Source: Methylibium petroleiphilum PM1 (GTDB lineage: Bacteria > Pseudomonadota > Gammaproteobacteria > Burkholderiales > Burkholderiaceae_C). From it: 64,000 bases of DNA. A program made the position numbers and the translations under genes. How positions within the stretch are numbered: position 1 is the first letter of the stretch; every line of letters begins with the position of its first letter. This document shows, one piece after another, positions 3,959-10,583 of the stretch. The stretch is taken from positions 2,604,001 through 2,668,000 of the forward strand of contig NC_008825.1 in NCBI RefSeq assembly GCF_000015725.1, read 5' to 3'. The notes beneath the pieces were generated by a model. It was not told the origin of the DNA. It saw nothing but the letters and a program-made list of their open reading frames with translations, and searched no databases.

Positions 3959-6856
3959 ATGCCGCACCGCGATGCCGCACTGACGCTCGTGGCGGCCAGC
4001 CCGACGCCGCCAGGCCCGGAATACGCGTTGCGCGAAGTGCTTGACCGGCTGGGCCCCTCGGTGTTCGCGGGCCTGCTCGACGCCGATGGCGTGCTGCGTT
4101 ATGCCAACCAGGCGGCGTTGCAGGCCATCGGCGCCACGCCGGAGCAGGTGCTCGGCCTGCGCTTCGAGACCACCCCCTGGTGGCAGGGCTGCAAGTTGTC
4201 GCAACGGCGGCTGCAGCAGGCGCTGGCCAGCGCATCGCGCGGCGAGGCATCCCGTTTCGACGTGCGCCTCGCCATCCGCGGCGACACGCTGGCCATGGAC
4301 TTTTCGCTGCTGCCGCTGTACGGGCCCGACGGACGCGTGGCCTGGCTGATCCCTTCCGCGCATGACGTGAGCGAACGCGAGCGGGCACGGCGCCAGTTGC
4401 GCCTGACGCGCCATGCCGTCGAACAGGCCCACGACGCGCTGTTCCTGGTCGGGCCCGACGGTGCCTATCGCGATGCCAATGCAGCGGCTTGCCGGCTGCT
4501 GGGCCTCACGCGCAAGCAGCTGCTGCGCCTGCGGGTGCACGACATAGACACCCAGGTCAACGAGACCTCCTGGCCACAGCGCTGGCACGAGATGTGCGAA
4601 CGCGGTTCGTCTCGTTTCGAGACCAATGTTCGCCATCACGATGGCCATGAGATTCCTGTCGATGTCTCCGTCAGCCTGGTGACCAGCGACGGGGAGACTT
4701 TCGCCCACGTCTGCGTCGACGACCTGCGCGATCGACGTGCCGCAGAGCGGCGCATCCAGCAGTTGCTGCAGTTCGACGAGCTGACCGGTTTGCCGAACCG
4801 CCAGCGGCTCTTCGAGCACCTGGGGGCCACCCTGCAGACCAGCGCCACAACCGCGGTGCTGGTGCTGGAGCTCGACCGCTTCAAGCGCATCAACGACGGC
4901 CTCGGCCCCCAGATCGGCGACGCCGTGCTGCGCGAAGTGGCCGGGCGCATCGCCGCCACCGTGCGCAGCGTCGACCTGGTGGCGCGCCGCGGCGGCGACG
5001 AGTTCGTGATCGTGATGCCGGCCCCGTCGGTGCCGGCGCCGCACGTGGCGCAGACGCTGCTCGAGACCATCGCGCGGCCGATGACGATCGAGGGGCACGA
5101 GATCCACCTCACCTGCGGCATCGGTATCGCCATGGCGCCCGCCGACGGCGACCGTGCCGACACGCTGCTGCGCCGCGCCAACGCCGCGTTGGAACAGGCC
5201 AAGCGGCTGGGCCGCAACCAGGTCAACGTCTATGCCGGCGCGCCGCATGATGACGACCCCGAACAGATGGCGCTGGAGACCGCGCTGCGCCATGCGCTGC
5301 GCGACGAGCAGTTCGAGCTGCACTACCAGCCCCAGGTGGATCTGGCGCAGGGCCGCATCGTCGGCGTCGAAGCGCTGCTGCGCTGGCAGCACCCGACGCT
5401 GGGGCGCATCTCCCCGGATCGTTTCATCCCGATCGCCGAGGAGACCGGCCTGATCGTTCCCATCGGCGACTGGGTGCTGCGCCACGCCATCGAGCAGGCC
5501 GCGGCCTGGCAACGCGCCAGGCTGCCACCGCTTCGCATGGCCGTCAATCTGTCGGCGCGCCAGCTGCTGCAGCCGGACCTGGCGCGACGCATCGAGGGCC
5601 TGCTCGCCGCAACCGGCCTCGACCCGCGGCGCTTCGGTGTCGAGGTCACCGAGAGCATGCTGATCGGCAACTTCGATCAGGCGGTGCAGCACCTGCGAGC
5701 GCTGCGTGCGCTCGGCGTCGAGGTCTCGCTCGACGACTTCGGCACCGGCTACTCGAGCCTGAGTTACCTGCGGCGGCTGCCGGTGGACGTCGTCAAGATC
5801 GACCGCTCGCTGGTGCCTGACGTCACCGCCCCGGCAGAAGACGTGTCGATCACGCGCGCCATCATCACGATGGCGCACCAGTTGCAGATGAAGGTGCTCG
5901 CCGAAGGCGTCGAAAGCGAAGGCCAGGCGGCACTGCTCGCCGCGAACCAGTGCGACCAGATGCAGGGCTGGTGGTTCAGTGCCGCACAGACGGCCGCAGC
6001 GATCGAGGCGATGCTGCGCGAGGGCCGGCAGATCGATCCGGCGCTGCTCGGCCGGCGTTCGCGGCAGCGCACCTTGCTGCTGGTCGACGACGAGGAGAAC
6101 ATCGTCGCCGCGCTGCGCCGACTGCTGCGCGCCGAAGGCTGGCTGCTGCTCGGCGCCACCGGCGCCGAAGAGGCGCTGCAGCTGATGGCACGGCACGAGG
6201 TCGACGTGATCCTGTCCGACCAGCGCATGCCGGGCATGACCGGCGTCGAGCTGCTGCGCCGTGCAAAGCAGCTGTACCCGGAAACGATCCGGCTGGTGCT
6301 CTCAGGCTACACCGAGCTGCAGTCGATCACCGACGCGATCAACGAGGGAGCGATCTACAAGTTTCTCGCCAAGCCCTGGGACGACGAGCAGCTGCGGACG
6401 CACCTGCGCGAGGCCTTCGCGTTGAAGGAGATGGCCGACCAGAACCGCCGCCTCGACGAGGAGGTGCAGGCTGCCAACCGCGAACTGGCCGAGCTGAACC
6501 GGCGGCTGCAGACACTGCTGAGTGCGCAGCGCGAGCAGAACGAGCGCGAGGTCGGCAGTCGCGAGGTGGCGCAGGAACTGCTGGATGCGGTGCCGGTGCC
6601 CGTGTTCGGCATCGACGACGAAAACCTGCTGGTGTTCGTCAACGCACCGGCGCGGGCGCTGTTCGGCCTGGATGGCAACCTGCTGGGTAGGCCGGCGGCC
6701 GAGCAGCTGCCGCAGACCTTGCGGCGGGCACTGGAGGGCGAGCCCCTGATGCTCACGCTGGCGGGTCGCCGCTGGTGGACGATGAGCCGGCCGTTGAGCG
6801 GGAACGCGCGCGGCCGCCTGTTGGTACTGCTGCCGCAAGCCGGCGCCTCGAAGTGA
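3959..6856 (+). CDS. PAS-PAS-GGDEF-EAL-REC-PAS cyclic-di-GMP enzyme
   Basis: A 965-residue cytoplasmic protein without membrane helices. In order: PAS (about 25-130), PAS (about 145-265), GGDEF domain with DELTGLPNR and GGDEF at 345-349 preceded by an I-site RSVD exactly five residues upstream, EAL domain with EAL at 471-473, NLSARQL, EVTES, DDFGTGYSSL, VVKIDRS and LAEGVESE, then an RpfG-like receiver (about 700-820, phospho-acceptor D754 in LSDQRMPGM, switch Lys in LAKPW), a coiled coil and a last PAS-like segment (about 865-965). Both catalytic signatures look intact, so it may make and break c-di-GMP. A receiver placed after EAL is uncommon. First gene of the signalling operon; its TGA overlaps a GTG at 6853. 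No clear ribosome-binding site precedes the chosen ATG, so the start is less sure. Confidence 0.9.
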   Translation: MPHRDAALTLVAASPTPPGPEYALREVLDRLGPSVFAGLLDADGVLRYANQAALQAIGATPEQVLGLRFETTPWWQGCKLSQRRLQQALASASRGEASRFDVRLAIRGDTLAMDFSLLPLYGPDGRVAWLIPSAHDVSERERARRQLRLTRHAVEQAHDALFLVGPDGAYRDANAAACRLLGLTRKQLLRLRVHDIDTQVNETSWPQRWHEMCERGSSRFETNVRHHDGHEIPVDVSVSLVTSDGETFAHVCVDDLRDRRAAERRIQQLLQFDELTGLPNRQRLFEHLGATLQTSATTAVLVLELDRFKRINDGLGPQIGDAVLREVAGRIAATVRSVDLVARRGGDEFVIVMPAPSVPAPHVAQTLLETIARPMTIEGHEIHLTCGIGIAMAPADGDRADTLLRRANAALEQAKRLGRNQVNVYAGAPHDDDPEQMALETALRHALRDEQFELHYQPQVDLAQGRIVGVEALLRWQHPTLGRISPDRFIPIAEETGLIVPIGDWVLRHAIEQAAAWQRARLPPLRMAVNLSARQLLQPDLARRIEGLLAATGLDPRRFGVEVTESMLIGNFDQAVQHLRALRALGVEVSLDDFGTGYSSLSYLRRLPVDVVKIDRSLVPDVTAPAEDVSITRAIITMAHQLQMKVLAEGVESEGQAALLAANQCDQMQGWWFSAAQTAAAIEAMLREGRQIDPALLGRRSRQRTLLLVDDEENIVAALRRLLRAEGWLLLGATGAEEALQLMARHEVDVILSDQRMPGMTGVELLRRAKQLYPETIRLVLSGYTELQSITDAINEGAIYKFLAKPWDDEQLRTHLREAFALKEMADQNRRLDEEVQAANRELAELNRRLQTLLSAQREQNEREVGSREVAQELLDAVPVPVFGIDDENLLVFVNAPARALFGLDGNLLGRPAAEQLPQTLRRALEGEPLMLTLAGRRWWTMSRPLSGNARGRLLVLLPQAGASK

Positions 6857-7005
6857 CCGCCCCGGCCGTTCCCGGCACGCCGCCTGTCGTTGTGCCCGTC
6901 GCACCGGTGGCGTTGACGCACCTGTTCCGCCACAGCCTGCGCGACGGACGGGTGCATCCGCTGCTGCACGCGGTGCAGCGCTACCGCCAGGAAGCACCAC
7001 GATGA
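6853..7005 (+). CDS. Possible 50-aa protein coupled to both neighbours
   Basis: A 50-codon frame that fills the gap between the GGDEF-EAL gene and the HDOD gene. Its GTG start overlaps the upstream stop (GTGA at 6853-6856) and its TGA overlaps the HDOD start (ATGA at 7002-7005), the same 4-base coupling used at the other junctions of this operon. The product is Pro/Val-rich at the N-terminus and basic at the C-terminus (LFRHSLRDGR, AVQRYRQEAPR). I do not recognise it. It could instead be a non-coding spacer with an open frame by chance; GC-rich DNA makes that possible. Confidence 0.4.
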   Translation: MTAPAVPGTPPVVVPVAPVALTHLFRHSLRDGRVHPLLHAVQRYRQEAPR

Positions 7006-10071: not shown

Positions 10072-10583
10072 AGCGGCTGCTGATCGTCGACGACCAGACA
10101 CCGGTACTGCATGCCCTGCGTCGTCTTGTGCAACGGCACTTCAAGCCGCAGCAACTCGGCGTGGAAGTCTGCGCCGATCCTCTGCAGGCCCTGCAGCGCC
10201 TGCAGCAGGCGCACTTCGACGTGCTGATCAGCGACTACCGCATGCCGCGGCTGGACGGCGTGACGCTGCTTGCCCGCGCCAGAGAACTGGACCCGCGCAT
10301 GGTGCGCATGATGCTCAGCGCGGCGGCCGACTTCGGCACGGTGCTGGCGGCAGTGAATCGCGCCGGGGTCTTTCGTTACATCACGAAGCCGTGGAGCGAA
10401 TCGCAACTGATCGCCGACCTGCGTGCCGCACTGGTGTTCGACCCTTGCGCCGCCCCGAGCGCTGACGAGCGGGAACGGCGCCGACTCGAGGCGCTGGAGC
10501 CGGGCATCACGCAGGTCGAGTGGGGGCCGAACGGCGAAGTGCTGATGCCGGGCCACCTGCCGACGCGACCGGGCAAGCTGTGA
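10068..10583 (+). CDS. Single-domain response regulator, RpfG-type receiver
   Basis: A 171-residue protein: a receiver domain of about 125 residues (LLIVDDQTPVLHALRRL, phospho-acceptor D56 in ISDYRMPRLDG, ITKPWSE) and a short tail without a known output domain. The tail ends VEWGPNGEVLMPGHLP. GTG start overlaps the upstream stop (GTGA at 10068-10071). Such stand-alone receivers serve as phosphate sinks, shuttles or protein-binding switches. The receiver resembles those of the GGDEF-EAL and HD-GYP proteins of the same operon (all have the RMP motif and an ITKPW or AKPW ending), suggesting duplication of one module. Last gene of the operon. Confidence 0.87.
   Translation: MKRLLIVDDQTPVLHALRRLVQRHFKPQQLGVEVCADPLQALQRLQQAHFDVLISDYRMPRLDGVTLLARARELDPRMVRMMLSAAADFGTVLAAVNRAGVFRYITKPWSESQLIADLRAALVFDPCAAPSADERERRRLEALEPGITQVEWGPNGEVLMPGHLPTRPGKL

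What the first reader, a model, noticed from the sequence alone, without database searches (positions are those of the whole stretch)
3959..10583. Compact c-di-GMP operon with one soluble kinase and three RpfG-like receiver domains
GGDEF-EAL, HDOD, histidine kinase, REC-HD-GYP and a lone REC gene are all chained by 4-base overlaps. The kinase lacks a sensor domain while the first protein has two or three PAS domains, and phospho-acceptors D754, D58 and D56 sit in three related receivers. This suggests a branched phosphorelay that sets c-di-GMP synthesis, EAL and HD-GYP hydrolysis from a single kinase, with HDOD as a possible scaffold. I know the parts but not this exact module.
Basis: partly seen in the sequence, partly recalled or inferred. 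Interest (0 to 1): 0.75.

Follow-up and report, generated by a model that had tools for sequence, protein, structure and literature searches.

The report
Conserved c-di-GMP operon with hidden microprotein
A bacterial operon puts one small kinase next to three matching receiver domains that sit on or beside enzymes making and breaking the messenger c-di-GMP; it is a conserved module seen in many relatives, and it hides a tiny protein gene that travels with its HDOD protein.

Summary
The five genes, their domains and the four named residues are real. The order recurs beyond one strain: of 80 kinase-matched loci, 30 have HDOD upstream, 26 also EAL plus receiver, 22 also HD-GYP, 18 also a further receiver. 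Ten close cassettes add a MocR-type regulator upstream. The receivers look HupR/NosR-like rather than RpfG-like. S is a shortened form of an unannotated ~105-aa family found at this HDOD subfamily in 28/30, 29/29 and 7/9 loci, twice in one open frame with it. Module HDODs keep an HD metal-ligand pattern that none of the genome's six other HDODs shows in full. Of 15 related kinases scanned, 13 carry sensor domains; this one has none. Best reading: a NosK/HnoK-like kinase/phosphatase setting three receivers, c-di-GMP hydrolysis as the conserved output, S-HDOD as input or receptor. No phosphotransfer is shown. New variant of a known kind; the S-HDOD pair is the fresh part.

The parts
2400..3869 (+). 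MocR-type regulator (GntR + aminotransferase class I/II), upstream member of the cassette
   Evidence: Pfam; upstream of P1 in 10 of 10 close cassettes at 85-96% (a 161-aa piece in L025); outer flanks share only one matching ORF pair among nine loci compared
3959..6856 (+). P1: PAS-PAS-GGDEF-EAL-REC (D754) plus C-terminal coil and weak PAS-like end
   Evidence: Pfam; active-site motifs
6853..7005 (+).
   Evidence: ATGA/GTGA overlap with P1 in 10 of 10 close relatives, dN<dS in 43 of 45 pairs; HMM in 28/30, 29/29, 7/9 loci
7002..7865 (+). HDOD protein with H119, H149-D150, H190, H214-H215 retained
   Evidence: Pfam; signature
7862..8779 (+). Histidine kinase without a recognised sensor domain, H55 in HEINN
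   Evidence: Pfam
8776..10071 (+). REC (D58) - HD-GYP (HD229, GFP) with a C-terminal domain related to the long form of S
   Evidence: Pfam; NCBIfam NosR family 503.7 bits vs cut-off 400, and weak match of a long S to that model's C-terminus (E 5e-4)
10068..10583 (+). Lone receiver (D56) with a ~50-aa tail
   Evidence: Pfam; GTG start overlapping by GTGA
10777..10870 (-). tRNA-Ser(GCT), right boundary of the cassette
   Evidence: ARAGORN; congener L107 lacks window 2073-10776 here

Best explanation
A soluble NosK/HnoK/HupT-like kinase-phosphatase sets the phosphorylation of three HupR/NosR-type receivers: one on a GGDEF-EAL protein, one on an HD-GYP protein, one alone. Phosphorylation tunes c-di-GMP hydrolysis (EAL, HD-GYP), with the intact GGDEF adding synthesis or GTP-dependent control; the lone REC acts as phosphate sink or adaptor. 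In 13 of 15 related kinases scanned there is a built-in PAS, hemerythrin, GAF or REC-PAS sensor; here there is none, so its input probably comes from a partner, most likely the S-HDOD pair, as NosP (FIST) or HnoX (H-NOX) do for their kinases. Shown: genes, order, residues, receiver paralogy, S-HDOD linkage, absence of a sensor domain. Inferred: phosphotransfer to each receiver, the sign of the effect, and S-HDOD as input.
For: Gene order in 18-30 of 80 loci by strictness. Receiver reciprocal-best paralogy. REC-HD-GYP passes the NosR model. NosK in print is likewise without membrane or sensor domains, HEINN, and phosphorylates REC-HD-GYP NosR (PMC12570481 passages). 13 of 15 other module kinases scanned, of 20 non-close ones, have sensor domains. 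S at HDOD in 28/30, 29/29, 7/9 loci, in one open frame with it in L029 and L174. EAL intact in 25 of 27, HD dyad in 26 of 26, GGDEF/SGDEF in 15 of 27.
Against: No biochemical data. No FIST in the operon; one FIST gene is unlinked and no H-NOX was found in the genome. 50 of 80 loci with this kinase type have no HDOD upstream (in L042, L090 and L092 the locus starts at the kinase, and L055 and L094 have HDOD in another order), so such kinases occur without it. Conversely the 13 kinases with their own sensor still have HDOD upstream, 12 of them with S (not L044), so S-HDOD is not simply a substitute sensor. S is missing in L044, L054 and L183, L184. In 10 of 20 wider regions S-HDOD has no kinase match directly downstream (L171 has one on the other strand, L170 ends about 2 kb after HDOD), which fits a receptor role as well. 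A HoxA-like receiver outside the operon outranks REC3 for REC1 and REC2. The fusion model gave no docking: S part pLDDT about 33-46.
Confidence: 0.5

Rival explanations
1. HDOD is an output or feedback receptor: it binds c-di-GMP, as reported for SadB, and reports the level to a partner, with S as its small co-factor; the kinase gets its input elsewhere.
For: SadB of Pseudomonas fluorescens, with a YbaK-like and an HDOD domain, binds c-di-GMP (PMC6543031 passages). S-HDOD occurs beside EAL genes without a kinase match downstream, and with kinases that have their own sensors.
Against: HDODs are described in print as lacking key active-site residues (PMC4114195 passages), whereas module HDODs keep them, so the comparison is loose. 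Which SadB domain binds was not seen in the passages.
Confidence: 0.3
2. HDOD is an active metal phosphohydrolase, a third hydrolase of the module.
For: H, HD, H, HH present in 27 of 29 order-level homologues; 0 of 5 own and 0 of 12 congener paralogue rows have it, some of these rows being partial alignments. HD and HDIG models match above cut-off.
Against: An HDOD with conserved HD residues (DVU0330) had weak bis-pNPP activity and none on c-di-GMP (PMC4114195 passages). The solved HDOD 3hc1 keeps the same residues in the alignment, so the pattern is not peculiar to this module. D234 is D, N or S.
Confidence: 0.15
3. The kinase serves only one or two receivers; co-location reflects ancestry, with the rest fed by other kinases.
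For: REC3 is only 36-42% like the others and its alpha-1 region differs; a HoxA-like receiver outside the operon outranks REC3 for REC1 and REC2; a further receiver was detected in 18 of the 22 loci with HDOD, REC1, EAL and HD-GYP.
Against: REC1 and REC2 are near-alike in alpha-1 (NI-AALRRL-R) and are reciprocal best paralogues.
Confidence: 0.3
4. S is not a protein but a translational coupling spacer.
For: Only 50 aa, GTG start, no Pfam hit.
Against: 43 of 45 pairs have dN<dS, mean ratio 0.42; distant loci encode a conserved ~105-aa form; two open frames run through S and HDOD, though an internal HDOD start is not excluded.
Confidence: 0.08

Closest known systems
NosP-NosK-NosR (nosRPK) nitric-oxide two-component system
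   Same: Sensorless HEINN kinase and REC-HD-GYP partner; our REC-HD-GYP passes NCBIfam NF053512
   Different: No FIST gene in the operon; adds GGDEF-EAL-REC, S, HDOD and lone REC; our HD pair is intact while the published NosR reads HG-GTP
HnoX-HnoK-HnoB/HnoD network (Shewanella)
   Same: One kinase phosphorylates a phosphodiesterase response regulator (HnoB) that another protein (HnoD) inhibits (passages; HnoB as EAL, HnoD as degenerate HD-GYP and HnoC are recalled)
   Different: No H-NOX found in this genome; S-HDOD pair and GGDEF-EAL fusion instead
HupT/HoxJ - HupR/HoxA hydrogenase regulators (names recalled)
   Same: Genome's nearest outside paralogues of kinase and receivers lie in a 20-kb stretch with a NiFe hydrogenase gene; HupR1 is the best-scoring solved receiver
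   Different: Output is a sigma-54-type regulator there, c-di-GMP enzymes here
RpfC/RpfG (recalled)
   Same: REC-HD-GYP effector
   Different: RpfC is a membrane hybrid kinase; the kinase here is short and has no REC domain
SadB / GsmR / DVU0330 HDOD proteins
   Same: HDOD domain in c-di-GMP or motility control
   Different: Module HDODs pair with S and keep the HD ligands, which GsmR is reported to lack in part; DVU0330 keeps HD too

Membership tests
NosR-family REC-HD-GYP (NF053512) | Curated score cut-off 400 bits | tested here: met
   503.7 bits over residues 10-420
NosP-NosK-NosR system | FIST-domain NosP encoded with the kinase | tested here: not met
   Only FIST match in the genome is at C1:3845273, 1.2 Mb away
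NosP-NosK-NosR system | Soluble kinase without sensor domain, H-E-x-x-T/N motif | tested here: met
   Pfam shows HATPase_c and a weak HisKA only; HEINN at H55; no membrane predictor was run
HnoX/H-NOX network | H-NOX (HNOB) sensor | tested here: not met
   0 HNOB matches in the genome
HDOD | Pfam PF08668 cut-off | tested here: met
   199.6 bits vs 22.9
HD-GYP phosphodiesterase | HD dyad and GYP motif | tested here: inconclusive
   HD229 kept; GYP reads GFP here and in 8 of 9 close relatives with the gene, GYP in L021
HD-GYP phosphodiesterase | c-di-GMP hydrolysis | not testable with these tools
   needs assay
RpfG-type system | Membrane hybrid RpfC kinase partner (recalled) | tested here: not met
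   Only kinase in the operon is 305 aa with no REC domain

The most novel reading that the evidence does not exclude
S-HDOD is an unrecognised two-protein unit that docks on soluble HupT/NosK-type kinases as an input, alone or beside a built-in sensor, or on receiver proteins as a c-di-GMP receptor; this operon is a stripped-down version in which kinase and S have both lost their extra domains, leaving a 50-aa helical hairpin as the coupling piece.
Probability: 0.25. Interest if true: 0.75.

Novelty: new variant of a known kind. Interest (0 to 1): 0.5.

Why it matters
If the kinase feeds all three receivers, one phosphate source sets an EAL/GGDEF enzyme and an HD-GYP enzyme together, a clean natural case of coordinated c-di-GMP control. 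The paired microprotein family gives a concrete handle on what HDOD domains do, whose mechanistic role a 2019 paper calls not established (passage).

Tried and rejected
Tried without result: promoter and terminator scans found none. Pfam gave no family over its cut-off for S, for three of its long relatives and a fourth (best DUF3391, 15.9 bits vs 27.8), or for the HD-GYP C-terminal domain. A PDB fold search with the long-S model (pLDDT 79, pTM 0.45) gave no match at E 0.001 or better; the top hits are MoeA and RNA polymerase pieces. The S-HDOD fusion model left S at low confidence. PADLOC gave only weak Cas3 matches to HDOD, taken as ordinary HD similarity. For an attachment-site repeat, window 10741-10880 was compared with 1951-2500: no exact word of 10 to 20 bases was shared.

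Rejected: a clear claim of horizontal transfer. Cassette synonymous divergence is below that of lysC in L021, L022, L024 and L025 and slightly so in L023, but about equal in L026, L027, L028, L029 and L087 (REC3 values of L025 and L029 are not orthologues; L024 and L025 are MAGs). Patchiness within the genus (own genome 1 of 6) and the congener's empty site fit gain or loss. Rejected: a link between kinase sensor loss and S shortening, since L045, L050, L056 and L058 have short S but sensor-bearing kinases.

Literature: no paper on this module was seen in the listings of searches of the open-access library; subscription papers are mostly not covered. Of the six papers opened, only passages were seen.

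Full report
What is there. Window 3959-10583 holds six same-strand genes, not five. P1 (965 aa) is PAS-PAS-GGDEF-EAL-REC; then S (50 aa, GTG start), HDOD (287 aa), a histidine kinase (305 aa), REC-HD-GYP (431 aa) and a lone REC (171 aa). All five junctions are 4-base overlaps, but only because S fills the 145 bases between P1 and HDOD. The genome is 4.64 Mb in two contigs, one of 4,044,195 bases; its size points to Methylibium petroleiphilum PM1, which is recall, not a tool result.

Conservation. A scan of species genomes with the kinase gave 95 relatives, of which the best 80 loci were kept. 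With BLAST thresholds, 30 of 80 have HDOD within 4 kb upstream, 26 also REC1 and EAL, 22 also HD-GYP downstream and 18 also a further receiver. L028 was missed at the REC1 step because a chemotaxis receptor gene (Pfam MCPsignal) sits between S and HDOD. L025 and L053 end inside the module; L042, L090 and L092 start at the kinase; L055 and L094 have the genes in another order. Fifty of 80 show no HDOD upstream, among them every locus titled Pseudomonas. Ten loci (L021-L029, L087; isolates of Piscinibacter, Rhizobacter, Aquabacterium, Pseudorhodoferax and Aquincola, and five MAGs) are close copies, all with the MocR gene upstream (a piece in L025). None of the window's other flanking genes tested (IS transposase, YCII, lysC, tilS, accA) matched in any of the 80 loci above 60 bits. 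Among outer-flank ORFs of nine of the ten, one pair matched, right of REC3 in L021 and L023. L029 lacks a detectable REC3.

Genus and site. Of six genomes in the genus only the window's own has the kinase and HDOD; the best-scoring others are 42% (194 vs 672 bits) and 33%. In the closest congener (lysC 98%), the segment matching window 2073-10776 is replaced by 333 bp between the YCII gene and tRNA-Ser. Gain or loss cannot be decided; synonymous divergence against lysC is mixed.

The missed gene S. In the ten close relatives its start overlaps P1's stop (ATGA or GTGA) in 10; its stop overlaps an ATG in 9 (in L028 that ATG is not HDOD's), and in L029 the frame runs on into HDOD. Pairwise dN is below dS in 43 of 45 pairs of ten sequences; L029 dropped out of that alignment. 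In distant modules the same slot holds a protein of about 105 aa whose N-terminal part resembles the C-terminal domain of the NosR-family HD-GYP (E 5e-4) and whose C-terminal half carries L-F-R...Y-R; in L045, L050, L056 and L058 it is about 60 aa. AlphaFold gives the long form a small beta part and two C-terminal helices; the window's S matches only that helical half. An HMM of S, built from the window and 18 kinase loci, finds it in 28 of the 30 HDOD-bearing kinase loci (partly circular), in 29 of the 29 best order-level HDOD loci outside the own genome, and in 7 of 9 class-level ones. Two of the 29 (L130, L131) are the same DNA as L024 and L056, leaving 27 of 27 independent. In L149, the same place as L174, S and HDOD lie in one open frame; an internal HDOD start is not excluded there or in L029.

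Wider anatomy. The order search examined 399 genomes, 125 with an HDOD match at E 1e-50 or better; only the best were fetched. In 20 wider regions S is at HDOD in 20, a GGDEF-EAL or EAL protein lies upstream in 14, a kinase directly downstream in 10 and a REC-HD-GYP in 8; L160 and L161 are the contigs of L024 and L056. The class search examined 369 genomes, 9 besides the own with a match at E 1e-75. In those 9 loci a REC in an open frame of its own without EAL (57-67% to REC1) precedes HDOD in 9, with a kinase match downstream in 4 and HD-GYP in 2. This suggests that REC-PAS, S and HDOD are the older core and that GGDEF-EAL was fused on later; that is inference.

Kinase and receivers. Of 20 non-close HDOD-bearing kinase loci, 15 kinases were scanned: 13 carry sensor domains (PAS in 12, four of them with hemerythrin and one with REC; GAF in one) and two, L030 and L053, do not. 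REC2's best paralogues among 54 places are REC1 (54%), then a HoxA/HupR-like receiver and REC3 (41% each); REC1's are REC2, the same outside receiver (45%) and REC3 (36%); REC3's are REC2 (42%) and REC1 (37%). The outside receiver belongs to a sigma-54-type regulator near a NiFe hydrogenase gene; the nearest outside kinase is a PAS kinase about 13 kb from it. So HupR/NosR-like is a better label than RpfG-like.

Outputs. EAL motif and DDFGTG were matched in 25 of 27 P1-like proteins (not L030, L032), GGDEF or SGDEF in 15 of 27, the HD dyad in 26 of 26 HD-GYPs; the GYP/GFP pattern was matched in 19 of 26 (text patterns only). Hydrolysis is thus the conserved output; this copy also keeps a full GGDEF and I-site.

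HDOD. H119, H149, D150, H190, H214 and H215 are invariant in 16 aligned module HDODs and complete in 27 of 29 order-level ones (not L144, L151), against 0 of 5 own-genome and 0 of 12 congener paralogue rows, several of them partial because the model was built on module HDODs. The sixth own paralogue keeps the HD pair but not the rest. The pattern is not peculiar to the module: solved HDOD 3hc1 keeps it in the alignment. HDODs are described in print as lacking PDE activity, SadB binds c-di-GMP, and DVU0330 with conserved HD residues showed only weak bis-pNPP activity (passages).

Mechanism. In the NosPKR system a sensorless HEINN kinase phosphorylates a REC-HD-GYP and is set by a separate sensor. 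By analogy the kinase here feeds the three receivers and takes its signal from a partner. S-HDOD is the best candidate because it is the one operon pair without an assigned role, but it also occurs without the kinase and beside kinases with their own sensors, so a receptor role remains open. No biochemical step is shown.

Verdict. A real, conserved signalling module assembled from known parts, with a missed partner protein for which Pfam and NCBIfam hold no model above cut-off. New variant of a known kind.

Noticed in passing
window 600-1793 (-): IS5-like transposase (Pfam DDE_Tnp_1, DUF772); about 470-1679 is absent from the closest congener, so an IS insertion beside the cassette.
   Followed up: partly
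L178 (own genome C1:2976500-2996000): NiFe hydrogenase gene with a HoxA/HupR-like regulator, and about 13 kb from it a HoxJ/HupT-like PAS kinase: nearest outside paralogues of the module's receivers and kinase.
   Followed up: yes
L028:7442-9178: A methyl-accepting chemotaxis receptor gene (4HB, HAMP, MCPsignal) sits inside the operon between S and HDOD.
   Followed up: partly
own genome C1:3845273-3845824: A FIST-domain gene far from the operon, a possible NO sensor; its neighbours were listed but not identified.
   Followed up: no
L022:9950-10468: A small membrane protein that looks PsiE-like by eye follows the lone REC gene.
   Followed up: no
L024:6181-9061: P1 is split over two frames in this MAG contig; left as is.
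   Followed up: no
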